Source of the DNA: Capsicum annuum | Taxonomy: Eukaryota > Streptophyta > Magnoliopsida > Solanales > Solanaceae | Length of the DNA: 64,000 nt | Assembly: GCF_002878395.1 (NCBI RefSeq) | Contig: NC_061119.1 | Location: 20,077,830 to 20,141,829 of the forward strand | Direction of reading: 5' to 3' | Part shown: positions 21,170 through 42,930 of the stretch, piece by piece | How positions within the stretch are numbered: the stretch's first letter is position 1 | Layout: every line of letters begins with the position of its first letter | Notes under the pieces: generated by a model | Databases searched by the model: none | What the model was told of the DNA's origin: nothing | What the model saw: only the letters and a program-made list of their open reading frames with translations | Position numbers and translations under genes: made by a program

Positions 21170-21735
21170 CACTACTAGAAAATACCGCTATCGTAATGAA
21201 TTTCTTTGCAGCAGTTACCCAGGCATTATGATAGAGGGCCTATTGATGCTCTAATAGACCTATTTGGTGGTATAACAATTGCATTTTTCATATAAACGTT
21301 ATATTAGACTACCCTATAGGAACGGTTGGGAAAATCATTGCCATATAGTTAGCTATGGTAACCCTTCATTTTGGAAAAAGAAATATTGCATCAATTTTAT
21401 CTTATATACATTTATGTCCACAAGTGAAAAAAGCGAAAATCATTTCTAAACTTCACATTATTGTACCCTTCTCTCTACAGCAAAAAGCATTGGTGCGAGT
21501 AAAATTGAGCACCATTTCTCCATTTATATAAGAATTGGATATACCTTAAGCCAATGATTTCTCTATTTATGTAAGTATCTCCATTTATGTACGCACCAGT
21601 AGCTCAAATTGACCATGCACCAGTACTGTAACCACCACTTCCATTTCCGATCTAATTTGGGGCTTTCTGTTAATTTGGTGATTTTAATGGTAGTTTATTT
21701 TTCTAATAGATGATTTTGACCTAATTTATGTAGGG
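21170..21735. other. CACTA left end: terminal repeat and subterminal region
   Basis: Terminal repeat CACTACTAGAAAA at 21170-21182, then about 200 bases of subterminal repeats with 'aacggttgggaaaatcattg' and 'gctatggtaaccc'. The remaining ~350 bases up to the viral junction are AT-rich and hold no gene that I can see. Confidence 0.65.
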
Positions 21736-21777
21736 AATCTATTATACCTACAAATCCGCGCACCCCCCTACAAATGG
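21736..21777 (+). repeat. Left copy of 42-bp viral terminal repeat
   Basis: Identical to 29902-29943 by eye. It runs from aatctattatacc to the first three bases (TGG) of the primer binding site. Confidence 0.9.
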
Positions 21778-21786
21778 TATCAGAGC
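21775..21786 (+). promoter_or_regulatory. Viral tRNA-Met primer binding site
   Basis: TGGTATCAGAGC is the exact complement expected for the 3' end of plant initiator tRNA-Met, the standard minus-strand primer of caulimovirids. It overlaps the terminal repeat by three bases, and a small ORF reads straight through it on the circle. Confidence 0.9.
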
Positions 21787-21897
21787 CCAGCAATTTAAAA
21801 AGTACGGAAGAGATGTGTATATTAGAATTAGAATTAGTTATAGAATTAGAATTAGATTTAAAGTTAAAAAATTACCTACGAAAATATTAAATTAATT

Positions 21898-22155
21898 ATG
21901 CGAAGACCATTTAAAAATAGAGAAGCTTTTAGAAAAATTAAAAAATCATTAATTAGTAATTATTCAGAATATATAAGTCTAAATAAAACAAAAGAAAATC
22001 CACAAAAACTAGCCTATTTAATTACATTAATATCTAGTATTGAATCAAAATTAATAACACATTTAAAATCTAGAAGAATGAAATATATACCGCCTAATTA
22101 TAATAAAATTAGATTTAGATATCCACCAAGATATTATAAATATAATTTAAAATGA
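21898..22155 (+). CDS. Small basic viral ORF (85 aa), unknown function
   Basis: A short Lys/Arg/Tyr-rich protein with basic ends (RRPFKNREAFRKIKK near the N-terminus, RFRYPPRYYKY near the C-terminus). No domain recognised. Its start lies two bases after the stop of the preceding circular ORF (21893-21895), and its stop overlaps the next start as ATGA (22152-22155). That arrangement suits termination-reinitiation. Its openness in a very A-rich sequence is mild support for coding; it may bind nucleic acid, which is only a guess. Confidence 0.6.
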   Translation: MRRPFKNREAFRKIKKSLISNYSEYISLNKTKENPQKLAYLITLISSIESKLITHLKSRRMKYIPPNYNKIRFRYPPRYYKYNLK

Positions 22156-22364
22156 ATAAAATACAACAATATAAAGAATTAAAACAAATTATCTCTGAAA
22201 AACGTAAAGAATTAAAAATAAGAATAGAAAGACTAAATTATAATATATTTGCCGGAGTTAGTAAAAATTCAATAAATACACAAAAAGATGAAATATCAAA
22301 ATTAGAATCACAAATAGATAGCTTAGAATATATATATCAACATGAACTATTCACAATAAAATGA
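22152..22364 (+). CDS. Small viral ORF (70 aa), coiled-coil-like
   Basis: Mostly Lys/Glu/Ile with heptad-like spacing (KQIISEKRKELKIRIERL and KDEISKLESQIDSLEYIY), so a coiled coil is likely. It overlaps the previous ORF and the capsid ORF by the tetranucleotide ATGA on both sides. The function is unknown. Small coiled-coil proteins upstream of the capsid gene in other caulimovirids are virion-associated, so that is one possibility. Confidence 0.6.
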   Translation: MNKIQQYKELKQIISEKRKELKIRIERLNYNIFAGVSKNSINTQKDEISKLESQIDSLEYIYQHELFTIK

Positions 22365-24148
22365 ATAAAGAAGAATTTATAATAGATGAAAAAATATATG
22401 AAAATTACGAAGGATCAAAAATAAAAATAGTATTTTCTAATCTAGGACGAAGATATAAGAAAATAGGTGAACATTTATATCTAATGTTAGAAAAAGAAGA
22501 ATTAAAATTAGAAGATAAATTAACAGCAATGGTAAGAATAGAAAAAGAAAATGAAGAGATAGATAGGAAAAAAGAAATAGAAAAAATAAAACAACAAACT
22601 ACGGAAGAAATACGAAAAATAGAAGAAACCAAAAATAGTAGAATTGCTGAACTAGAAAAAGAATTACAAATGTTAAAAGAACTGTATGAACAAAGACAGA
22701 AAGAAAAAGAAGAAAAAGATAGAGAACAAAAATTACTAAATGAGATAAATCAATTTAAGGAAAAATTAGAAATAAAAAATGAAGAGTTAGAAATAAATAA
22801 TATAGATGTCGAAGAAACAGATAATTATGAGTCCGAAGATAGCGAAACATACACAGAAATATTAACAAATACAAAAAATTTAGAAATCAATGAAGAACAA
22901 AATATTAATGAGGAAAACTTAGAAAATACCCAAACAGAAATAAATACTCTTGATACAAAAGAAAATGAAAATATAATACCTAAAACAACAGAAATAAGGA
23001 AACCTATATATTATAAGAATAAGTTTAAAAAATATAATGAATATGATAAATGGATACCAAAACAAATAATAAATAAAAATTATAACTTTTTAGATCTAGA
23101 CTGTGTAATAGATACAGAAAAAACAATACAATTATGGACAGGAAATATGACAAAACAATTATTAGATAATAATATAAATATAATAGATGCACCGGAATAT
23201 ATAGAAAAAACATTAATAGGATCAGTAAAACTATGGTTTGCAAATCTAACCGAAAATAGCAAAAAAGTATTAAGAACTAGTAAACCTATAGAAGGAACAT
23301 CATCGACGACAACTAAACTAACACCTATAGAACTATTAAAAAAATATGAAACAGCTATAAAAGATGAATTTGGTAGTACGACAACAATCGAAGAAGAACA
23401 AAATGAAGAAAAAGATACAAATAGGAATTTAATGTTAAAATTAGCAATATGTAATATGTGTTATATAGATGAATATACTTGCGCATTTAAAGAATATTAT
23501 TACAAAGGAGCATATAGTATAGAAGAAAGTAAAGAAATAAGAAAATTATATTTTAATAAATTACCCGAACCATTTAGTTCGAAAATAATAAAAAGTTGGG
23601 AAGAAGCAAAAATAGTAGATACGTTAGGAGCAAGAATAAAATATTTACAACAATGGTATAGAAACTTATGTGAAAAATATAGAGAAGAATTAAAAATGGA
23701 AAAAACATTAATAAGAAATTTAGCTTGTTGCAAAAATAAAATAGCACCCCAATTTGGATGCGAAGAAAGATATTATAAGAAAAGAAAAAGACATAAGAAA
23801 TATAAGAAATATAAAAAATCAAAATATAAATATAAAAAACCAAGAAAAAGATACTATGTAAAAAATTATAAACATAAAAGACCATATAGAAAAAAGAAAT
23901 CTATAAAAGAATGTACTTGTTATAATTGTGGAAAGTTAGGACATTTAGCTAGAGATTGTAAATTACCTAAAAATCCAAAAAATAAACAAATATCAGAAAT
24001 AAAAATAGAAAATACCGAATACATGCAGATAGATTATATAGATTATGAATTAGAAAGTGAAGATAGTATATATGAAATTTCAGAAAATGAAACAGAAAAC
24101 GAAACAGATAATGAAACAGATAGCGAAATAGATGAATTAAATGACTGA
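22361..24148 (+). CDS. Viral capsid protein (595 aa) with zinc knuckle
   Basis: Order of parts: an N-terminal Glu/Lys-rich, coiled-coil-like region (about residues 35-150), an acidic stretch (about 150-210), the central capsid core (about 220-470), a very basic Lys/Arg/Tyr block (about 470-515), and a CCHC zinc knuckle CYNCGKLGHLARDC with C520, C523, H528 and C533. An acidic tail ends it. This is the caulimovirid coat protein layout: the basic block and knuckle bind the pregenomic RNA. The frame is intact. It starts inside the previous stop (ATGA) and overlaps the movement ORF by eight bases. Confidence 0.9.
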   Translation: MNKEEFIIDEKIYENYEGSKIKIVFSNLGRRYKKIGEHLYLMLEKEELKLEDKLTAMVRIEKENEEIDRKKEIEKIKQQTTEEIRKIEETKNSRIAELEKELQMLKELYEQRQKEKEEKDREQKLLNEINQFKEKLEIKNEELEINNIDVEETDNYESEDSETYTEILTNTKNLEINEEQNINEENLENTQTEINTLDTKENENIIPKTTEIRKPIYYKNKFKKYNEYDKWIPKQIINKNYNFLDLDCVIDTEKTIQLWTGNMTKQLLDNNINIIDAPEYIEKTLIGSVKLWFANLTENSKKVLRTSKPIEGTSSTTTKLTPIELLKKYETAIKDEFGSTTTIEEEQNEEKDTNRNLMLKLAICNMCYIDEYTCAFKEYYYKGAYSIEESKEIRKLYFNKLPEPFSSKIIKSWEEAKIVDTLGARIKYLQQWYRNLCEKYREELKMEKTLIRNLACCKNKIAPQFGCEERYYKKRKRHKKYKKYKKSKYKYKKPRKRYYVKNYKHKRPYRKKKSIKECTCYNCGKLGHLARDCKLPKNPKNKQISEIKIENTEYMQIDYIDYELESEDSIYEISENETENETDNETDSEIDELND

Positions 24149-25373
24149 AGAAGATATAAAAATAATAACAAAAGAAGAATATTTAAATGATGAAGGAACG
24201 GAACAAAAAATAATATTTGACAGTAATATATTTGATGAAATAAAAGGAAAAGAATTAGATTTAAGTGTAGACAAAATATTTAAAATACCAACAATAAAAA
24301 ATATTTTTACTAGGAAAAAAGATGAATATTACGTAGTATGCCAAAAAGAACATGTAATAGACTGCAGATATGCAAAAGGAAAAGCTAGTATACCACTAGT
24401 AACAAAAAGAATAATTAATAAAGAAATAAATGATATAAAAAGTAAAGGAGATCCAATAAAATATGTACACCTTGGAGGTACAGAGATATTAATAAAAGCA
24501 TGTTTTAGAGAAGGAATAGATACACCAATAGAATTATATTTAGCAGACGATAGAATTATAAAACCTATAGAAAAAAGCATAATAACTGCCGTAAAAGGTA
24601 ATCTAATATACCAAAAATTTAAATTTATAATAAGTGCGAATTATTCAGTAGCAGTAACAGATAGGAATATAGATAAATCATTAGTATTATATTGGAAAAT
24701 ATCAGGAATAGAGTTAACCCCAGGAAGTAAAATATTTACAGCAAGATGTAAAAACCTATATGTATTAACAACAAAACATAAAATAACAGGAAAAAATAAG
24801 ATTAACAAAATACAAATAGAAAGCCCATTTGAACAAATAGTAAAAACAATAGATTATAATGATTATACCTATAGAGACATAGATACAGAAGAAAATTTAG
24901 AAATAGTAAATGATAGAATAAGTACAACGAAAAGAATAGCTAATGAAAAGCCAGAGTCATCAAGCTCATCAAAAAGAACAAGTTATGAAACAAACTCAAT
25001 AAGTAATTTAAACCAATATTACATAACAGGAAAAATAAATGAAAAAGAATATCTAATACTTTTGAATACAGGACAAGAAGAAAATTATATAGCAAGATAT
25101 CTAGTAAAAAATGAAGAAATAAAAACCGATAATAATATATGCCCAGATTTACCAAGAAGTTTAATAAATAATAAAAATCTAGCAGAAAAAGAAATAATAT
25201 TAGGAGTTAGAAAAATAAAAATAGAATTCGAAGTAAAGGAAGAAATGCAAAAAGCAGATATAATATTAGGAATAAAATGGTTGGAACAAGTAAAACCATA
25301 TAATATAGAACATACACAATTAACCTTAACATATAACCAAGAAAAGTTATTCTTAAAAAGAGCCTTAACATGA
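24141..25373 (+). CDS. Viral movement protein (410 aa) with retropepsin-like C-terminal domain
   Basis: The N-terminal ~250 residues occupy the place of the 30K-superfamily movement protein, which opens plasmodesmata for cell-to-cell spread; I recognise it by position and general pattern rather than by a catalytic motif. After a Ser-rich linker (about residues 270-285) comes a segment with LNTG at 308-311 and ILGIKWL at about 376-382. That is the spacing of an aspartic protease, but with Asn for the catalytic Asp. The next ORF begins with a second, canonical protease. The frame is intact and ends one base before the polymerase start. Confidence 0.75.
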   Translation: MTEEDIKIITKEEYLNDEGTEQKIIFDSNIFDEIKGKELDLSVDKIFKIPTIKNIFTRKKDEYYVVCQKEHVIDCRYAKGKASIPLVTKRIINKEINDIKSKGDPIKYVHLGGTEILIKACFREGIDTPIELYLADDRIIKPIEKSIITAVKGNLIYQKFKFIISANYSVAVTDRNIDKSLVLYWKISGIELTPGSKIFTARCKNLYVLTTKHKITGKNKINKIQIESPFEQIVKTIDYNDYTYRDIDTEENLEIVNDRISTTKRIANEKPESSSSSKRTSYETNSISNLNQYYITGKINEKEYLILLNTGQEENYIARYLVKNEEIKTDNNICPDLPRSLINNKNLAEKEIILGVRKIKIEFEVKEEMQKADIILGIKWLEQVKPYNIEHTQLTLTYNQEKLFLKRALT

Positions 25374-25374
25374 A

Positions 25375-26904
25375 ATGAAGATACATGTATTAATGAAGAT
25401 AGTAGTAGAAGGATATTACAGTAGATATTATACGCCTATGATAGATACAGGAGCAGAAGCTAATTTATGTAGATATAATTGCTTACCAGAAAGCAAATGG
25501 GATAAACTAAAAACACCAATAATAGTCAAAGGATTTAATAATGAAGGAAGCTTAATTACTTATAAAGCTAGGAATGTAAAAATACAAGTATGGGATAAGA
25601 TATTAACAATAGAAGAAATTTATAACTATGAATTAACATCAAAAGATATACTTTTAGGAATGCCATTTTTAGATAAATTATACCCACATATAATAACTAA
25701 AACAGACTGGTGGTTTACAACACCATGCAAACAAAAAGTAAGAGCAAAAAGAGTTAATAATAAAATAAGAAAGAAAACTGATTGGATAAAAGGAAGTGAA
25801 AAAATTACACAAAAGTTAGAAAATATAAACAATACTGAAGATACTGTAGAACTAGTAGTATTTTCGATAAATAAAACAGAAATAACTATATTTTCAATTA
25901 ATAAAATAGAAATAATCCAGAAAAAATTAGAACAATTATATAGTGAAGATCCATTAAAAGGATGGGAAAAACACAAAACTACTATAAAAATTGAATTAAT
26001 AGATAAGAATAGCATAATAACACAAAAACCATTAACATATAATTTTGATGATTTAAAAGAATTTAAAATGCACACAGATGATATATTATTATATACAAAA
26101 ACTAAAGAAGAACATTTAAAATTATTAGAACAGTTCACAGATATAATAGAAAAATCAGGAATAAGTCTAAGCAAAAAGAAAGCTGAAATTATGAAAAACC
26201 AGATAGAATTCTTAGGAATACAAATAGATAAAAGTGGAGTAAAAATGCAACAACATATAGTACAAAAAATAATAAATTCGAAAGAAGAATTAGATACAAA
26301 AAAGAAATTACAATCATTTTTAGGATTAGTAAACCAAGTAAGAGAATATATTCCAAAATTAGCAGAAACCTTAAAACCACTGCAGAAAAAATTAAAAAAG
26401 GATATAGAATATAATTATGATGAAAAAGATAAAAAACAAGTTCAAAAAATAAAATTACTTTGTAGAGAATTACCTAAATTACAATTTCCAGACGAAAATA
26501 GAAAATTTATATATATAGTAGAAGCAGATGCAAGTGAATATAGCTACGGAGGAGTACTTAAATATCGATATGAAGCAGAAAAAATAGAACATCATTGTAG
26601 ATATTACTCAGGTACGTTCAACGAAACAGAAATAAAATGGGAAATAAATAGAAAAGAGTTATGTTCATTATATAAGTGTTTATTATCATTTGAGCCATAT
26701 ATTGTATATAACAAATTTATTGTACGAACAGATAATACACAGGTACGTTGGTGGCTAACAAAGAAAATACAAAATTCAGTTACAACGAAAGAGATTCGAA
26801 GACTAGTTTTAAATATATTAAATTTCACATTTACAATTGAAGTGATCAGTACTAACAAAAATGTTATTGCAGATTACGTATCAAGACAAAGCTACACAGA
26901 CTGA
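25375..26904 (+). pseudogene. Viral protease-RT-RNase H polyprotein with RT core deleted in frame
   Basis: Aspartic protease with DTGA at residues 24-27 and a downstream LLGMPF (93 on). The RT N-terminal approach reaches about residue 232. The text then jumps to the two catalytic aspartates (D235, D236, in HTDDILLYT), losing the fingers and most of the palm. RT thumb and connection follow, then a full RNase H (E383-A-D385 start, the EINRKELCSLY helix, RTDNTQ and the final ADYVSRQ). Missing length is roughly 130 residues, judged by family spacing. The deletion kept the frame. Without the palm the product cannot polymerise DNA. Confidence 0.88.
26850..26872 (+). promoter_or_regulatory. Candidate splice branch point and acceptor upstream of the transactivator
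   Basis: TACTAAC at 26850-26856 is a perfect branch-point consensus, followed after a short spacer by ttattgcag with AG at 26871-26872. The acceptor lies 12 bases inside the last ORF, at codon phase 0. It matches in phase the donor at 28592/28593 in the leader small ORF. Confidence 0.6.
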
Positions 26905-28102
26905 AATAGTAGAGGAAGATACTCTAGAAAAAATACTTAACACCCTAACTACGCTTTCAATGAAAGTGGACAGTATGGGTAATGAGATAGAAAAGCTAAA
27001 GACTAATGAAGGTAAACTGAAGTCTATAGCTACAAATCAGCTAACTCAGCAGTGTGCAGAGCTATGTCGATCGGAAGACATTAAAAATCCAGAGCTAGAA
27101 GGAGACGTTGGGACACTCCATAAAACCCATAACATTTATCAATCTACTTCTGCAGGTACAAGCAAAGGAGTTAATAGACCAAGATACCAAAATGCAAATA
27201 TGAATAAAATATTCGAAAAACCATTTACCCCTAAAACACAAAAAGACCATTTATTCATACCCCCACAAGTTAATACATACCGAGACAGCCTAAACCAAGA
27301 CAAGAAAATATACAACTACACAGCCCAAAAATACATAGAAAATATATACAGAGTCCAAACCTTTCTAAACCATAACCCCAGAGCTACAGATATCAAAGAA
27401 CCAAATACCAATTATATAACCCAAAAATTACAAGGATACAACAAACTGATAGCACTACCTAAAACTAACCCAAGCCTAGTTAAAACTTGTTTTGACTATG
27501 GACTACTAAATACCATATACACCCAAGACGGAGAAGAGTTAACACCTATGGAGGAATTATACAAGATATTTACTACCTATAAAAGAATAACAAAAGGAAC
27601 TTTATTTTATATAAAATGTTATACTGCACCAGCAGAGATATTATATGATGAGATAAAACCAGTAATACAAGTTGTAAAGATAGGACTGACAAGAGACATG
27701 ATTATACCGGAAGATATATCGCGACAACCGGAGATACCTAGAATAGAGATACCAGATTTTTACGCAAATAAAAGACTTATTGGACTAGCTACGATCATAC
27801 AAGAACTAGCAAATAACTACGCTAACGGAAATCCAATATGGAGCTACTATTCAAGAGACCACCAAATGATATATTCAAATTCGAAAGAACTAAGACAAGC
27901 AGATATGGAAGATGTAAGACAGTGGATATTGACACTACTCAACCCAGAAAAACAATCTACCGCACGAGCAATAAAAAAGGGATTTATTTCAGACGGACTA
28001 CTAACGAGATACTGTAAGATAATTGGACATAAATATCCAGACCACCAATGTTCGAGGTGCAATGGAGAAGATAATATTATTCCAGAGGTACATCTAGAAT
28101 AA
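26861..28102 (+). CDS. Viral transactivator / inclusion-body-like protein (413 aa)
   Basis: This is the last large ORF, in the place of the caulimovirid transactivator (translation reinitiation factor and virus-factory matrix). It has an N-terminal heptad-rich helix (LEKILNTLTTLSMKVDSMG), a Thr/Ser/Pro-rich linker, and a folded core from about residue 140 with a Cys/His-rich end (RYCKIIGHKYPDHQCSRC), perhaps metal-binding. It overlaps the RNase H end by 44 bases in another frame. The frame is open. A spliced form could start from the leader ORF. Confidence 0.75.
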   Translation: MLLQITYQDKATQTEIVEEDTLEKILNTLTTLSMKVDSMGNEIEKLKTNEGKLKSIATNQLTQQCAELCRSEDIKNPELEGDVGTLHKTHNIYQSTSAGTSKGVNRPRYQNANMNKIFEKPFTPKTQKDHLFIPPQVNTYRDSLNQDKKIYNYTAQKYIENIYRVQTFLNHNPRATDIKEPNTNYITQKLQGYNKLIALPKTNPSLVKTCFDYGLLNTIYTQDGEELTPMEELYKIFTTYKRITKGTLFYIKCYTAPAEILYDEIKPVIQVVKIGLTRDMIIPEDISRQPEIPRIEIPDFYANKRLIGLATIIQELANNYANGNPIWSYYSRDHQMIYSNSKELRQADMEDVRQWILTLLNPEKQSTARAIKKGFISDGLLTRYCKIIGHKYPDHQCSRCNGEDNIIPEVHLE

Positions 28103-28140
28103 AGAAGATAAAATGCCAGCTGGAAGGATAAAGATAAAGA

Positions 28141-28206
28141 GCAATAATGGAGCAGATACAGGGCAATAATAGAGCAGATACGGAGCAATAATGGAGCAGA
28201 TACGAC
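28141..28206 (+). repeat. Three 22-bp tandem repeats in the viral promoter
   Basis: Units start at 28141, 28163 and 28185 (gcaataatggagcagatac core), with one or two base changes. They lie about 220-290 bases upstream of the TATA box, the place of enhancer elements in caulimovirid promoters. Confidence 0.8.
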
Positions 28207-28429
28207 AAAATCAACGGAGACAAGATACTGTACATTAACTAATTTGTTAGACTTTTACGTAGAAGAAATATATATGTAAGCCACTATTGTTGACTATTTT
28301 TTTTCTTAAGTTTTAGGAATTGTAAGAAACTTTATGTAACTTAGAATTTTAGGAGAAGTTAGATGGGGATAGGCCCCACTGTTTTAATTTTCATTACTTT
28401 TTAGCAACAGCAGACATGTAAATTCATTC

Positions 28430-28437
28430 TATAAATA
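28430..28437 (+). promoter_or_regulatory. Viral TATA box
   Basis: TATAAATA, with transcription start expected about 25-35 bases later (about 28460), before a CT-rich start region (ctttctctctcc). It would drive the terminally redundant pregenomic RNA. Confidence 0.8.
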
Positions 28438-28538
28438 CAAAGGTCGAGGGTATTGCGAAAGGCAAGCCTTCTTTTGAAGCAAACCTTTCTCTCTCCATTC
28501 CACAAAAATTACTCAGTTAATTAGATAAATATACTCCA

Positions 28539-28622
28539 ATGGAAAAAGCTATGGAACAACAAAACTCAGAAACATCAAAGCTACCGGAACAGGTATATCT
28601 ATTTATAATTATGAATAGCTAA
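28539..28622 (+). CDS. Leader small ORF (27 aa) ending in a splice donor
   Basis: First ATG after the expected start site. After 18 codons the text reads gaacag|gtatat, a good donor (28592/28593) at phase 0; unspliced, it runs nine more codons to TAA. The ORF stops 41 bases before a long hairpin, the arrangement that promotes ribosome shunting in caulimovirid leaders. A dual role (shunt ORF, or first exon) is inferred. Confidence 0.6.
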   Translation: MEKAMEQQNSETSKLPEQVYLFIIMNS

Positions 28623-28654
28623 TTTCATAATTCCCAACAATCATGATATGATAA

Positions 28655-28660
28655 AATAAA
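28655..28660 (+). terminator. Viral poly(A) signal
   Basis: AATAAA about 200 bases downstream of the expected transcription start, as in other caulimovirids whose RNA passes the signal once and stops the second time. A few bases later the hairpin begins. Confidence 0.6.
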
Positions 28661-28662
28661 TT

Positions 28663-28913
28663 CATATTAGTTACTTTATAGTAGAATTATTCGAAGAATA
28701 ATATGTTAAGAAGTTTATTAACAAAGAGGAAACGGAGAAATATCCCTAAGGACTATGCCATCCTAAAGGTGAAACCATTGAGGCAAGAAGCCGTGGCGGG
28801 GAGTAACCAGAGTAGAGGCGCTGTTTAAGGGAAAAAGTATCCAGATTACCATGTTAATAGTGACGGAAGAACATATTATTTAAGAATAATCTAGTATATA
28901 GTAAGCCAATATG
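28663..28913 (+). ncRNA. Long leader hairpin of the pregenomic RNA
   Basis: The arm 28663-28707 is the near-complement of 28870-28913: starting words catatt and aatatg pair, and the inner aataatatgtt pairs with aacatattatt, with few mismatches over about 45 bases. The ~160-base loop is less AT-rich than its surroundings (28708-28869). Such leader stems direct shunting and packaging in caulimovirids. Confidence 0.75.
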
Positions 28914-28974
28914 ACCATATTTTGTTGTGTACGTGATTGAAGGGAATATTTTGAAAAAAGCAAATTTATGAAAA

Positions 28975-29160
28975 ATGAATGATAATATATCTGATGTGAT
29001 GGTAGATAAATTCAAGATACTTATTTTGTATGCACTTAGAAATATAAAAGTAGCAGATATAAGAAAAATAATATTAGAAAAAGCTTTTGGTAAAAATTAT
29101 ATGTCTAGAATAAGCTATATACCACAAATACCTAACTACTCTTATAAATACTTAAGGTGA
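28975..29160 (+). CDS. Small viral ORF (61 aa), diverged duplicate of the next ORF
   Basis: First ATG ORF of size after the hairpin. Residues about 11-37 (KFKILILYALRNIKVADIR) match LKVLILYILKNIEIIDIK in the ORF at 29238-29501, and IILEK follows in both. The protein is hydrophobic/basic and possibly helical. Function unknown. Confidence 0.5.
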   Translation: MNDNISDVMVDKFKILILYALRNIKVADIRKIILEKAFGKNYMSRISYIPQIPNYSYKYLR

Positions 29161-29237
29161 TAAGTTACATAAAAAAAAAAAAAGAGATAAAAAAAAAAAA
29201 AACTTTTGCAGTTACTAGAAAAAATAAAAATAAACAC

Positions 29238-29501
29238 ATGGAAAACAAAGATATAAAATTTCTTAATAAAAATATGCAAAAACTACTAAGACTAAAACAA
29301 ACAGCTACAAAACAATTTAAAAAAAAAATAGATCATTTAGATTATCTTAAAGTTTTAATATTGTATATACTTAAAAACATAGAAATTATAGATATTAAGA
29401 AAATAATATTAGAAAAAGTAATAGATTACGAAACTGAAACTATAAATTACTTAGAACAGTTATACGAAGAAATTTACCCAGAAGGATATTATTCAGATTA
29501 A
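29238..29501 (+). CDS. Small viral ORF (87 aa)
   Basis: The ATG at 29238 is the first in the frame; the frame is open further upstream through poly(A) tracts (29169-29201) but lacks an ATG there. A Lys-rich start is followed by the helix shared with the preceding ORF and an acidic, Tyr-rich end. Its stop is three bases before the next ATG. Confidence 0.55.
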   Translation: MENKDIKFLNKNMQKLLRLKQTATKQFKKKIDHLDYLKVLILYILKNIEIIDIKKIILEKVIDYETETINYLEQLYEEIYPEGYYSD

Positions 29502-29504
29502 AAA

Positions 29505-29807
29505 ATGTTAGAATATATTAGACAAACTAGAGAAAATCAAGAAAATCTAAATAATGAAATTAATTATAGAAACCGAATTAGACAAATAATGAAAGACCTA
29601 AAAGAAAAATTAATATGGATAGAAAAAACCTTAGAAAATTTAGATAAAAGTACATGTGATAGTTTATATAATTTAAAAAACTCACTACGAGAAGAACAAC
29701 ACAAAATAATAAATAACATTGAAAATCTAGAATTAGATATATATTATAGCACAGATAGGATAAATTATTATACAAGAATTTGTAACTCTGTAATTACTAC
29801 AGGATAA
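29505..29807 (+). CDS. Small viral ORF (100 aa), coiled-coil-like
   Basis: Helical, with charged heptads (IMKDLKEKLIWIEKTLENL and LREEQHKIINNIENLELDI), resembling in style the 70-aa ORF at 22152. It starts three bases after the previous stop. It is a candidate virion-associated or structural helper; function unknown. Confidence 0.55.
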   Translation: MLEYIRQTRENQENLNNEINYRNRIRQIMKDLKEKLIWIEKTLENLDKSTCDSLYNLKNSLREEQHKIINNIENLELDIYYSTDRINYYTRICNSVITTG

Positions 29808-29815
29808 AATAATTA

Positions 29816-29956
29816 ATGAATATATCTTACGAAAAAAGTAAATTATTAAAAGATAACATCCACGCACTAAATAAAAATAGATTCCCTACAAATATGTACA
29901 AAATCTATTATACCTACAAATCCGCGCACCCCCCTACAAATGGATTTAAATTTTGA
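29816..29956 (+). pseudogene. Circular viral ORF cut by the integration ends
   Basis: The frame opens at ATG 29816 and enters the terminal repeat; here it runs into flanking DNA and stops at 29954-29956. From the equivalent point in the left copy (21775) the same frame stays open through the primer binding site to TAA at 21893-21895, two bases before the next ATG. On the circle it would be about 81 codons. No domain is seen. Confidence 0.6.
29902..29943 (+). repeat. Right copy of 42-bp viral terminal repeat
   Basis: Same bases as 21736-21777, offset 8166. It ends at TGG, the first three bases of the primer site; the flanking DNA then differs. Confidence 0.9.
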
Positions 29957-32155: not shown

Positions 32156-33358
32156 GATGTTGGGAGTATTATATGTCTAAGCACCATAACTAACCCATGT
32201 GTTAGCTAAGTTTTGAGGATAAAATACATAATTCTTGCACTTTGTCTATTTTTAGTTAAGTGAGTTGACCTATGTGATTAGAATGCTTTTCAGGTACTAA
32301 TGAGGAAGATTACAACACTTTGGAGACCTGTGGATAGCAAAGGAAACTTCACATAAAAGGAAAGTAGCTTTTGGACTGAATGTGATATATGGGAACTTTT
32401 TCCCGGGCAAACTCAATATTTTTAAATAGTTAAGGATGCAGTAGCAATTTATTAGAGAAGGATGTTATTAAAAGCCTTATGGCTGAATTTTTAGGGATTA
32501 TTCATTATTTGGTATTATTTTGAAAACAAGAGAAAGCGGCTTAGCTTGAGGAGAAAGAGAGAAATGTTTTACTCTCTTATTTTCCCTATTCATCTTCTCC
32601 ACCAAGATCTTTCTAAGTTTTGGTATGATGAATATTTCTATTGTGATTTCCATTTTATTCATGAGTGGCTAAGTTTATTTGTCAGGGTTATGGAAATCTT
32701 GTAGTATACTCTCTATTGCTATGGGTTTTTTGAATTTATGATGTGTTAATTCACTTATATTATTAGTCTCTTCGTTATGATTGAATTCTTGTGGTTGCAA
32801 ACATAGGGAATGTGCCATTATAGCAATAACTTGTTTGATAGAAAATTTACTATTTGGAAAATAGATTAGTGACAAGAAAATAGGGTTTCCAACCTCTATT
32901 TTATACGTTAATGCCTTAGCAGGATTAACTACTTCGAGAGTTCGTATGATTGGTTGTACACTTTGAATTCGAGAGAACTAAGGTGAATAAATCCTTGATG
33001 GTTGAGAAACACTTGGATTTAGAATTAGAATACATCTCTCTATAAGTTCATGTATGTATAAATCCTTATTACTCATAGTTAATAGAGAAGTAAAAGCTAC
33101 AAGGTGGACATAACCCTAACTTGTCATTCTCTATGATCAAATATTAATACACATATTGCTTCATTGTTATATTGTAACTATCATTTTAAATTTAAACCAA
33201 AACCCCCATTCAGGAACCTCTGACCAACAGTCCAGTAACAACTGCAATACTTAGTAACATAGTATTCCCTTTAGGATTCGACACCCAACATGGTTGGGTT
33301 CTATATTTGACAGCGACCGCTTACTCTCTCGTAAGAGAGGTGTAATTTGGGTGTATCA
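32156..33358 (+). repeat. Athila-like 5' LTR
   Basis: Starts TGATGTTGGG and ends gtgtatca. Confidence 0.9.
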
Positions 33359-38378: not shown

Positions 38379-39585
38379 TGATGTTGGGCATATTTATATG
38401 TCTAAGCACCATAACTTACCCATGTTTTAGCTAAGTTTTGCGGATAAAATACATAATTCTTGCACTTTGTCTATTTTTAGTTAAGTGAGATGACCTATGT
38501 GATTAGCATGCTTTTCAGGTACTAATGAGGAAGATTACGACACTTTGGGGACCTGTAGATAGCAAAGAAAACTTCACATAAAAGGAAAGCAGCTTTTGGA
38601 TTGAATGTGATATATGGGAACTTTTTCCCGGGAAAACTTAATATTTTTACATAGATAAGGATGCAGTAGCAATTTATTAGAGAAGGATGTTATTAAAAGC
38701 CTTATGGCTGAATGTTTAGGGATTATTCATTATTCGATATTATTTTGAAAACAAGAGAAAGCGGCTTAGCTTGAGGAGAAAGAGAGAGAAATGTTTTTCT
38801 CTCTTATTTTCGCTATTCATCTTCTCCACCAAGATCGTTCAAAGTTTTGGTATGATGAATATTTTTATTGTGATTTTCATTTTATTCATGAGTAGCTAAG
38901 TTTATTTGTTAGGGTTATGGAAACCTTGTAGTATACTCTCTATTGCTCTGGGTATTTTGAATTTATGATGTGTTGATTCACTTATATCATTGCTCTCTTC
39001 GTTATGATTGAATTCTTGTGGTTGCAATATAGGGAATGTGCCATTATAGCAATTAACTTGTTCGATAGAAAAGTTACTATTTGGAAAAGAGAGTAGTGAC
39101 AAGAAAATAGGGTTTCCAACCTCTATTTTACACGTTAATGCCTTAGCAGGATTAAATATTTGGAGAGTTCGTATGATTAGTTGTACACTTTGGATTCGAG
39201 AGAACTAAGGTGAATAAATCCTTGATGGTTGAGAAACACTTGGATTTAGAATTATAATACATCTCTCTATAAGTGCATGCATGTATAAATCCTTATTACT
39301 CATAGTTAATAGAGAAGTAAAAGCTACAAGGTGGACATAACCATAACTTGTCATTCTCTATGATCAAATATTAATAAACATATTGCTTCATTGTTATATT
39401 GTAACTATTATTCAACTTTAAACTAAAACCCCCAATTCAGGATCCTCTACCCAACAGTCCTGTAACAACTACAATACTTAGTAACACAGTATTCCCTGTG
39501 GGATTAAACACCCAACCTAGTTGGGTTCTATATTTAACAGCGACTGCTTACTCTCTCGTAAGAGAGGTGTAATTTAGGCGTATTA
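38379..39585 (+). repeat. Athila-like 3' LTR
   Basis: Starts TGATGTTGGG after the purine tract; ends gcgtatta (TA for CA). Confidence 0.9.
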
Positions 39586-40404: not shown

Positions 40405-41220
40405 TCATGTACAGTTCATTATATACATTAAACATCCCAATACTCTTGTGTACTCTAATAGTGAGTCACTTTCACCTTCATTCTTTTGAAGTGTAAAGCT
40501 CACATCCAAAGGAGTCTTGGCAATACCGAATTCTATATACTTAAATTTGTCAAGTACTTTTTCGATATAATGAGACTGTGACAATGCCAACCCTTGTAAA
40601 GTTCTATGGATTCTTATACCTAAGATCATATCCGTAACTCCAAGGTCTTTCGTATCAAACTTGCTTTCAAGCATTCGTTTCATTGCATTTATGTCTGAAA
40701 TATCTCTACTGATGATAAACATTTCATCCACATATAAACAAAAAATGATTTGATGACTCGGAGTGTCTTTAATGTAAACAAATTTATCACATTCATTTAT
40801 CTTGAACCCGTTTACCAACATAGTTTGGTCAAACATCGCATGCCATTATTTAGGTGCTTGTTTTAGTCCATACAACAACTTAATAAGTTTACACACCTTA
40901 TTCTCATTTCCTGGAACCACAAAATCCTCAGGTTGTTCCATGTAAATTTCTTCCTCCGATTCTCTATTTAGGAATGGGGTTTTCACATCCATTTGATGGA
41001 TTTCAAGACCATATACTGCCGTTAAGGCAATTAACATTTGAATCGATGTTATCCTTGTTACTGACGAGTATGTATCAAAGTAATCAAGGCCTTCTTTTTT
41101 CTTGAAGCCTTTTACTACAAGTCTTGCCTTGTATTTGTTAATAGTACCATCCGCTTTCATTTTCCTTTTGAAGATCCATTTAGAACCTAAAGGTTTATTT
41201 ACTGGAGGAAGATCGACCAA
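40405..41220 (-). pseudogene. Copia-2 reverse transcriptase
   Basis: Frames 40846-41220 (GSKWIFKRKMKADGTINKYK, ARLVVKGFKKKEGLDYFDTY, MDVKTPFLN) and 40405-40836 hold the RT core. The catalytic YVDD box reads YVDE (LYVDEMFII), so the second Asp is lost. A stop lies between the frames at about 40840. Confidence 0.88.
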
Positions 41221-41537
41221 TTTCCATGTATGGTTGCTTAAGATTAAATCAATCTCACTATTGACTACCTCTTTCCAAAAGGATGAGTCTGATGACGATA
41301 TCGCTTCTTTAAATGTTCGAGGCTCAGTTTCTAAGAGAAATATTTCAAAATCTAATCCAAATGTAGTAGAAGTTCTTTGATGTGTACTACATCATGGATT
41401 CTTTTCATTATGTACATTCTCACTTGATTTATCTCGAGGTTGTTGAGACCCTCCACTAGACTATTCATGTCTAGTTTTATACGGGTAAATGTTTTCAAAG
41501 AATTCAACATTATCTGATTCAATTACCGTATTTTCAT

Positions 41538-42930
41538 TTATATCCGATGTTCAGATTTATGAACCAAAAACCAACATGCTTTACTGCTTTTAGCATATCC
41601 TATGAACACGCAATCTACAGTCATAGGTCCTATCTTAACCCTCTTAGGCATAGAAACTTGGACCTTGGCTAGACACCCCCACACTTTGAAATATTTCAAG
41701 TTAGGTTTCCTTTCTTTCCATTTTTCATAAGAAATTAATTGTCTCTTACTATGGGGAACTCTATTGAGTATACGATTGGTTGTAAGGATAGCCTCCTCCC
41801 ACAAGTTTTGCGGTAAACTGGAACTTATAAGCAAGACATTCATAATTTCTTTCGAAGTTTGTTTTTTCCTTTCTGAATATGGGGCCGTAGTTTGATTGAA
41901 AAATTCCATTCTCTACACATATTTCAGCGAAGGGAGATTCATATTCTCCACCCCTATCACTTCTTATCATTTTTATCTTTTTTTCTAACTGGTTTTCTAC
42001 TTCAATTTTGTATTCCCTAAATGCATATAATGCTTCATCCTTACTATTTATCAAGTAGACATAATAATATCTAGTGCAATCGTCAATAATAGTTATGAAA
42101 TACTTTTTCCCACCATGTGATAGTGCTGACTTCATATCACGAATGTCAGTGTGTACTAAGTCTAAAGCATTGGAATTCCTTTCAATGGACATATAAGGGT
42201 ACTTTGCATAATTTGATACCACACAAGTTTGACACTTTGATTTATTGCACTCAAAATTTGGCAAAACTTCTAAGTTAATCAATTTTCGTAATATTTTGTA
42301 ATTAACATGGCCTAAATGTTCATGCCATAAAATATAAGACTCAAGCATGTAAGAAGAATTTGAACTTTTATTTATTTCAATATTTATTACATTCATTTTA
42401 TAAAGGCCCTCGTTGAGATAACCTTTTCCTACATACACTTCTCCTTTGCTAATTATAATTTTTTCCAGAAGCGTTACATATTTGAATCCGTTCTTGTCTA
42501 GAAGTGAAACAAAAATCAAGTTCCTACGTAATTTTGGAACATACAAGACATTATTAAGTGTCAAGACCTTTCCTAAAGTCATTTTCAAGCCTATTTTTCC
42601 TATTCCTTCTACCTTAGCCGTAGCGGAGTTAGCGATGTAGAGTATTTCTTCCACTTGAGCCGGAACGAATGACGAAAACAACTCTTTGTTGGAACAAACA
42701 TGGCGGGTGACACTAGAATCTATCCACCACTCGCTAGGATTCCCCACTAAGTTGCATTCGAAAAAAATAGCACACAGATCATCACATTCTTTATTGGAAT
42801 CAATCATATTTGCTTGGTACTTTTCCTTCTTAGGGGAACGACAATCCGTGGACTTATGGACAGTCTTGCCACAGTTGAAGCACTTTCCCTTTAATTTCTT
42901 CTTGGGTTGATGGCTTCCTTGTTCAGCTTT
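41538..42930 (-). pseudogene. Copia-2 gag zinc knuckle, protease and integrase
   Basis: The region reads, from 42900 down: zinc knuckle (CGKTVHKSTDC, in a frame carrying a stop), protease with WWIDSSVTRHVCSN (Gly of DSG replaced by Ser), integrase zinc finger (HEHLGHVNYKILRK then CQTC), and catalytic D in LVHTDI with a second D in IRSDRGGEYES. A frameshift near 41900 leads to the frame 41538-41909, with LPQNLWEEAILTTNRILNR and GCLAKV. The order protease-integrase-RT proves Ty1/copia. Confidence 0.9.

What the first reader, a model, noticed from the sequence alone, without database searches (positions are those of the whole stretch)
26850..28622. Splice pair that would fuse the viral leader ORF to the transactivator
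The leader small ORF (ATG 28539) meets a donor gaacag|gtatat after exactly 18 codons. On the circular genome the RNA later reaches a perfect TACTAAC branch point (26850-26856) and the acceptor ttattgcag (26871-26872), 12 bases inside the transactivator frame, also at phase 0. The two open frames would be joined without a shift. Rice tungro bacilliform virus is known to make its last ORF this way; I know of no such description for solendovirus-like endogenous viruses.
Basis: partly seen in the sequence, partly recalled or inferred. Interest (0 to 1): 0.9.

Follow-up and report, generated by a model that had tools for sequence, protein, structure and literature searches.

The report
Spliced leader–transactivator fusion in plant pararetrovirus
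A virus copy in a plant genome carries a splice donor in its short leader gene and a splice acceptor at the start of its last gene, in the same reading frame, so a circular copy would likely make its predicted transactivator from a spliced RNA, a route known from rice tungro bacilliform virus but not found for this virus group in the papers searched.

Summary
The leader sORF (ATG 28539) reaches donor CAG|GTATAT after 18 codons. TACTAAC (26850-26856) and acceptor TTGCAG|AT (26872) lie at the start of the TAV-like ORF, also at phase 0.
The insertion (about 21727-29943) is a TVCV-like solendovirus with CP, MP, Pol and TAV; its Pol is internally deleted.
For splicing:
- The donor is the best-scoring GT of the leader and sits in the uORF before a large hairpin, as described for RTBV.
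- Resampling Pol codons gives TACTAAC in 1% of trials; it uses codons the virus avoids.
- The implied intron (6,446 nt) is 76% AT, the exons 65%.
- Three of 120 listed homologous protein models, from three Solanum species, join another first exon at the codon of this acceptor. Two of those exons share G[AS]TNLxK.
Against:
- No RNA data, and no DNA of relatives could be fetched.
- The acceptor ranks only 22nd of 558 AGs.
- A TATA box at 26669 with no ATG before the TAV start fits the textbook 19S-type subgenomic RNA.
- Strict TACTAAC is probably not conserved.
In the lone linear insertion the donor lies 3' of the acceptor, so forward splicing needs a circular or tandem template.

The parts
21727..29943 (+). 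endogenous solendovirus-like pararetrovirus insertion, about one genome length (8166-base unit) with a 51-base, 94% terminal repeat (21727-21777 / 29893-29943)
   Evidence: direct repeat D5; Pfam domains
28430..28437 (+). TATA box of the likely pregenomic RNA promoter (start site predicted near 28463)
   Evidence: sequence; start site inferred
28539..28622 (+). 5'-proximal leader sORF (27 codons plus stop); first ATG after the predicted start site
28590..28598 (+). splice donor CAG|GTATAT; last exon base 28592, phase 0
28630..28947 (+). large leader hairpin; its long 27-pair helix starts 8 nt after the sORF stop (shunt-like configuration); a further 16-pair helix 28609-28627 / 28952-28971 reaches into the last sORF codons
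   Evidence: MFE of 28623-28974 -99.2, z -7.6 against 60 mononucleotide shuffles
28655..28660 (+). AATAAA, predicted poly(A) signal; donor and sORF would therefore lie in the terminal redundancy
   Evidence: role inferred
21775..21786 (+). Met-tRNA primer binding site TGGTATCAGAGC
   Evidence: motif as quoted in PMC1899175
25375..26904 (+). Pol ORF (protease, RT, RNase H), internally deleted in this copy; its 3' end encodes the branch site and acceptor in another frame
26669..26676 (+). TATATAAG inside Pol, candidate TATA box of a rival 19S-like subgenomic promoter; no ATG from 26662 to 26860
26850..26856 (+). TACTAAC branch-site consensus
26870..26872 (+). splice acceptor CAG|AT; last intron base 26872, phase 0 in the TAV frame
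26861..28102 (+). TAV-like ORF, 413 codons (exon 2 would start at 26873)
   Evidence: some homologs carry the name translation transactivator/inclusion body protein

Best explanation
The leader sORF and the start of the TAV-like ORF carry a donor and an acceptor that both cut at phase 0, and pregenomic RNA made from a circular or tandem viral template is predicted to be spliced between them, removing about 6.4 kb and giving a likely monocistronic mRNA in which the sORF's start codon and 18 codons would head the predicted transactivator. Shown: the sites, phases, composition difference and ORF order; the hairpin is a computed fold. Inferred: that the RNA is made and spliced, that the fusion protein is translated, and that the TAV-like protein transactivates. 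Unspliced RNA would use the same sORF for ribosome shunting into the CP-MP-Pol series. A spliced fraction would supply TAV, as RTBV does for P4. The lone linear insertion in this window cannot make the junction by forward splicing, because its donor lies 3' of its acceptor.
For: Sites and phase. The donor is best of the leader, 3rd of 215 GTs in the virus, and the only one of 20 leader GTs inside the sORF. The sORF ends 8 nt before the long helix of a large hairpin; in RTBV the donor also sits in sORF1 (PMC2241666 passages; PMC5902531 passages).

Avoided codons at the branch site: ACT 19 of 106 Thr, AAC 16 of 107 Asn; resampling gives TACTAAC in 209 of 20000. Intron AT is 0.763-0.764 against exons 0.646 and 0.654. 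The best AT change-point in 25375-28102 falls after 26868, support 26513-26943.

Of 120 listed homologs (of 313 found), 73 show the junction by a motif search, and the residue before it is Q in 69, K in 2, H in 1 and R in 1. Three models have another first exon ending at the junction: P0017 of S. pennellii, P0040 of S. pinnatisectum, P0088 of S. verrucosum. The P0017 and P0040 exons share G[AS]TNLxK (139 of 20000 shuffles reach that score). The P0017 exon scores higher against the window's sORF (20 and 16 for two nested starts) than against the other ATG..CAG|GT peptides of the window (15 counted, best 6 printed, next 6.0), though the resemblance is weak against shuffles (574 of 20000 interior shuffles; 3092 of 20000 full shuffles).
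Against: No RNA evidence. No relative's DNA could be read (searches confirmed none; the genome search did not complete). The acceptor ranks 22 of 558 AGs, and a far stronger AG at 27155 (15.5 bits) is out of frame with the sORF. CAG is cheap under Pol coding (13320 of 20000). In the fold of 28463-28974 the donor itself is paired (28592-28605 with 28522-28535), which could hinder its use.

The N-termini MKISLQ/MKILLQ of 11 homologs imply AAT, not AAC, at the branch site if read colinearly (my inference), and P0119 and P0058 imply its loss. In 69 of 120 listed homologs an N-terminus of at most 8 residues precedes the junction (68 with a Met; P0027 is a partial model), so direct initiation is possible. 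None of the 11 homologs held only from ena, jgi or lgn sources that show the junction has a leader exon (counted). The exons of P0040 and P0088 do not resemble the window's sORF (11350 and 11076 of 20000 shuffles). Gene models may be ab initio. The lower AT of TAV may only reflect that gene's own codon usage (third position 0.72 against 0.85-0.89), and in the leader the best AT split is at 28944, not at the donor.
Confidence: 0.64

Rival explanations
1. TAV is made from a 19S-like subgenomic RNA. A promoter inside Pol (TATATAAG, 26669) starts a short RNA whose first AUG is the TAV start at 26861, and the splice-like signals are by-products of Pol coding and AT-rich sequence.
For: No ATG from 26662 to 26860, so TAV would have the first AUG. 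A review names this strategy for Solendovirus TAV as likely (PMC5902531 passages). 69 of 120 listed homologs start within 8 residues of the junction (one of them, P0027, is a partial model without a Met).
Against: TATATAAG is encoded by Leu-Tyr-Lys of Pol, which most Pol tails of relatives share, so it too may be a by-product. It does not explain the best leader donor sitting in frame in the sORF, the avoided branch-site codons, or the models P0017 and P0040. It does not exclude splicing in parallel.
Confidence: 0.22
2. Chance or coding by-product: the sORF is only a shunt uORF and the donor is not used, or is used with other acceptors such as the strong AG at 27155. TAV comes by reinitiation or from host-promoted transcripts.
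For: Acceptor rank 22 of 558, and 27155 is much stronger. CAG recurs in 67% of codon resamplings. CaMV uses many donors and acceptors, and its P1P2 fusion proteins are dispensable for infectivity (PMC4498817 passages).
Against: The joint occurrence of donor in the sORF, phase match, TACTAAC and first-AG rule is rare. The same junction codon is chosen in gene models of three species.
Confidence: 0.14

Closest known systems
Rice tungro bacilliform virus (Tungrovirus), ORF IV/P4 mRNA
   Same: Donor inside the 5'-proximal leader sORF; one large intron (6.3 kb there, 6,446 nt here); in-frame fusion of sORF1 to ORF IV (PMC2241666, PMC4498817, passages seen).
   Different: The review finds no recognisable TAV homolog in Tungrovirus; [quoted passage not shown] Splicing is shown for RTBV, only predicted here.
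Tobacco vein clearing virus (Solendovirus) and Solanaceae EPRVs (LycEPRV, NsEPRV)
   Same: Pol 73-77% identical to TVCV over two segments; gene order CP-MP-Pol-TAV as given for TVCV-like EPRVs (PMC1899175, section 5 part 1 read); Met-tRNA site.
   Different: 8,166-base unit against 7,767; several small ORFs between leader and CP; this copy's Pol is deleted. PMC1899175 has no hit for 'splic'.
Cauliflower mosaic virus 19S RNA and 35S splicing
   Same: TAV from a distal ORF; a leader donor is known; alternative splicing of the pregenomic RNA (PMC4498817 passages).
   Different: CaMV TAV comes from the 19S promoter, and the splice acceptors named in the passages seen lie in ORFs I and II, not at TAV.

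Membership tests
Solendovirus (Caulimoviridae) | Pol closest to TVCV/SPVCV | tested here: met
   tblastn TVCV Pol 76.6% and 73.1%, SPVCV 64.2% and 47.1% on two segments; the named hits of the Pol-tail search are TVCV, a N. tabacum entry and SPVCV; no other genus was compared
Solendovirus (Caulimoviridae) | ORF order CP, MP, Pol, TAV and Met-tRNA primer site | tested here: met
Solendovirus (Caulimoviridae) | four ORFs only | tested here: inconclusive
   four large ORFs plus small ORFs of 61-100 codons before CP; whether these are genes is untested
Caulimovirid transactivator (TAV) | sequence kinship with named TAVs | tested here: met
   P0008, named translation transactivator/inclusion body protein of N. 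tabacum, 64% identical; a name, not a tested function
Caulimovirid transactivator (TAV) | recognisable Pfam domain or fold | tested here: inconclusive
RTBV-type leader-sORF splicing | donor within the 5'-proximal sORF ahead of the leader hairpin | tested here: met
RTBV-type leader-sORF splicing | acceptor at the start of a distal ORF, same phase, intron about 6 kb | tested here: met
RTBV-type leader-sORF splicing | spliced RNA observed | not testable with these tools
   no RNA reads available
RTBV-type leader-sORF splicing | sites conserved in relatives at DNA level | tested here: inconclusive
   no relative DNA found; protein-level hints only
CaMV 19S-type TAV RNA | TATA box close upstream and TAV AUG first in the RNA | tested here: met
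   TATATAAG 26669, no ATG 26662-26860; start site itself not testable

The most novel reading that the evidence does not exclude
TVCV-like solendoviruses make their transactivator as a leader-peptide fusion from a spliced RNA that only a circular or tandem template can yield. TAV, and with it translation of the polycistronic RNA and silencing suppression, would then be gated by template topology: single germline insertions, in which the donor lies downstream of the acceptor, stay without spliced TAV, while episomes and tandem arrays switch it on.
Probability: 0.25. Interest if true: 0.8.

Novelty: new variant of a known kind. Interest (0 to 1): 0.6.

Why it matters
A 2015 paper states that splicing had been described in only two genera of the family, Tungrovirus and Caulimovirus (PMC4498817, passage seen). 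A 2018 review expects solendovirus TAV to come from its own promoter (PMC5902531, passages seen). RTBV-type splicing for TAV would show that this expression route is not tied to P4, would make the start of TAV in Solanaceae viruses a testable question, and could explain why some annotated Solanum relatives have first exons ahead of TAV. It would also link TAV expression to template topology, which bears on why single endogenous copies stay quiet.

Tried and rejected
Relatives' DNA: four viral-contig scans and one genome-contig scan confirmed no relative, so donor, branch and acceptor could not be aligned as DNA.

Own-genome search: the genome search was asked 11 times with the same request and did not complete.

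Pfam finds no TAV domain.

A second viral copy in the window: blastn of two pieces of the insertion against the rest of the window printed no match, and tblastn with P0003, P0083, P0127 and P0129 hit only the known insertion.

P0019 as a spliced model: rejected. Its N-terminus can be read colinearly and implies a YTNAC at the branch position (my inference).

The acceptor at 27155: strongest in the virus but not in frame with the sORF (the phase is my arithmetic).

Literature: nine paper searches listed, among the titles and abstract starts shown, no description of solendovirus splicing. 'splic' has no hit in the main texts of PMC12904150, PMC10377300, PMC13308828, PMC1899175 and PMC4411674. 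The library lacks most subscription journals. PMC4411674 places its virus nearer Petuvirus and is not a solendovirus control.

Full report
What is there. The window holds one endogenous pararetrovirus, about 21727-29943, bounded by a 51-base direct repeat 8,166 bases apart. It has CP (22361-24148, Caulimovirus coat domain and zinc knuckle), MP (24141-25373), Pol (25375-26904, protease, RT, RNase H) and a last ORF of 413 codons (26861-28102). The Met-tRNA primer site is at 21775-21786. The search with the Pol tail gave 10 hits, of which the named ones are TVCV, a N. tabacum entry and sweet potato vein clearing virus. The last ORF has 313 homologs, of which 120 were listed; the named ones are Solanaceae (Solanum, Nicotiana, Capsicum) except two under a bird, and some are called translation transactivator/inclusion body protein. 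The Pol ORF of this copy lacks about 120 residues relative to P0122, so the copy is presumably defective.

The observation. The sORF at 28539 is the first ATG after the predicted start site (TATA 28430; no ATG in 28463-28538). It reads 18 codons to CAG|GTATAT and would end at 28622. The acceptor lies 12 bases inside the TAV frame, 17 bases after the branch A of TACTAAC, with no AG between. Both cuts fall between codons. On the 8,166-base unit the intron would be 6,446 bases.

Is it more than chance? The donor is best in the leader and 3rd of 215 GTs in the virus; the acceptor is 22nd of 558 AGs, on approximate weight matrices that I recalled. Because the acceptor region is the end of Pol in another frame, Pol coding must be the null. 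With the virus's own codon usage, CAG recurs in 13320 of 20000 resamplings, TACTAAC in 209, an in-phase acceptor as good in 2307, the same with CTRAY upstream in 43, and with TACTAAC in 3. The branch site uses codons the virus avoids: ACT 19 of 106, AAC 16 of 107. These are post hoc figures.

Architecture. The sORF stops 8 bases before the long helix (28630-28658 with 28918-28947) of a large computed hairpin (28623-28974: -99.2 against -60.6 for 60 mononucleotide shuffles, z -7.6). A further helix (28609-28627 with 28952-28971) reaches into the last sORF codons, and in the fold of 28463-28974 the donor is itself paired. A review predicts shunt configurations for solendoviruses, and in RTBV the donor for P4 lies in the shunt sORF (PMC5902531 passages; PMC2241666 passages). 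AATAAA at 28655 suggests that the donor lies in the terminal redundancy.

Composition. The implied intron is 76.3-76.4% AT; exon 1 is 64.6% and exon 2 65.4%. The best AT change-point in 25375-28102 is after 26868, within a support range of 26513-26943, so it cannot separate acceptor from ORF start. AT rises from 0.63 to 0.80 across the donor in 65-base bins, but later leader bins fall again to 0.57 and 0.51 in the hairpin top, and the best single split of the leader is at 28944. The third codon position is 0.72 AT in TAV against 0.85-0.89 in the other ORFs. Plant introns are known to be AT-rich relative to exons (recalled); other causes are possible.

Relatives, protein level only. Of the 120 listed homologs, 73 show the junction region by a motif search. 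The residue before it is Q in 69, K in 2, H in 1 and R in 1. Read together with Ala-Asp of Pol, Q implies the AG (inference). The start codon is less fixed: MLLQ, MSLQ, MKISLQ, MKILLQ and MQ all occur. 47 of 120 start after the junction or lack it, and 10 of 120 do not begin with Met. P0040 (S. pinnatisectum) reads ...RGSTNLLK before ITSQGKD. P0088 (S. verrucosum) has a different exon ending in Q before ITYHDK. That P0040 and P0088 are spliced rather than colinear is my inference from the Pol residues a colinear reading would require. The local match of GATNLQK and GSTNLLK is reached by 139 of 20000 shuffles. Resemblance of P0017's exon to the window's sORF is weak: 574 of 20000 interior shuffles reach the score, and 3092 of 20000 in a full shuffle. 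P0040 and P0088 exons show none to the window's sORF (11350 and 11076 of 20000). A search with P0017 residues 1-55 found no further model with that exon (9 hits, P0017 itself included). Whether these models rest on RNA reads is not known.

Against strict conservation. If read colinearly, the 11 MKISLQ/MKILLQ homologs imply AAT where the window has AAC, leaving at best CTRAT. P0119 and P0058 imply loss of the site. P0019 implies YTNAC is kept. These are back-inferences from two overlapping frames, not DNA. None of 11 homologs held only from ena, jgi or lgn that show the junction has a leader exon (counted).

Mechanism. I commit to RTBV-type splicing for the TAV-like protein, with unspliced RNA serving shunting and the CP-MP-Pol series. 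The main rival is a 19S-like subgenomic RNA: TATATAAG at 26669 and no ATG until 26861, the strategy the review expects for solendoviruses. Both may operate. In the lone insertion the donor lies 3' of the acceptor, so only circular or tandem templates can give the forward junction. Tandem integrants are a proposed source of episomal copies (PMC1899175 passage).

Novelty. PMC4498817 (passages seen) says splicing had been described in only two genera. Nine searches listed nothing on solendovirus splicing. It is a new variant of a known kind, if real.

Noticed in passing
25375-26904: The Pol ORF stays open but aligns to relative P0122 mainly as residues 1-238 and 359-644: about 120 residues of the RT region are missing, so this copy is presumably replication-defective.
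   Followed up: partly
28975-29160, 29238-29501, 29505-29807, 21898-22155, 22152-22364: Five small ORFs of 61-100 codons lie between leader and CP. The first two share an 81-base 73% direct repeat (D4) and similar peptides, which looks like a duplicated small gene; no Pfam match above cut-off in the four scanned or in 29505-29807.
   Followed up: partly
29893-29943: The 3' copy of the terminal repeat ends with the first three bases of the Met-tRNA primer site, as if a linear form opened at the minus-strand gap had integrated.
   Followed up: no
26611, 26742, 27155: Strong isolated splice-like sites: two CAG|GTACGT donors in Pol (12.4 bits) and the best acceptor of the virus inside TAV (15.5 bits), not in frame with the sORF.
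   Followed up: partly
32169-33126 and 38394-39353: Direct repeats 93-95% alike about 6.2 kb apart, like LTRs of an element; separate Copia-like pol fragments (RVT_2, rve, gag_pre-integrs) on the minus strand at 40405-42807.
   Followed up: no
protein hits P0049, P0060: TAV homologs 52-56% identical annotated in a bird assembly (Cyanistes caeruleus), probably plant material in the sample.
   Followed up: no
protein hit P0083: A TAV with 50% identity stands for 20 sequences on 9 contigs (jgi, lgn, ena), the longest 8,295 bases, possibly an exogenous relative; it keeps MLLQ before the junction.
   Followed up: partly
leader, 28430-29943: Here the order is TATA, AATAAA, hairpin, then a distant primer site; PMC1899175 (section 5 part 1 read) describes the primer site 50-60 bp upstream of a conserved box in some LycEPRV clones. 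The difference is not resolved.
   Followed up: no
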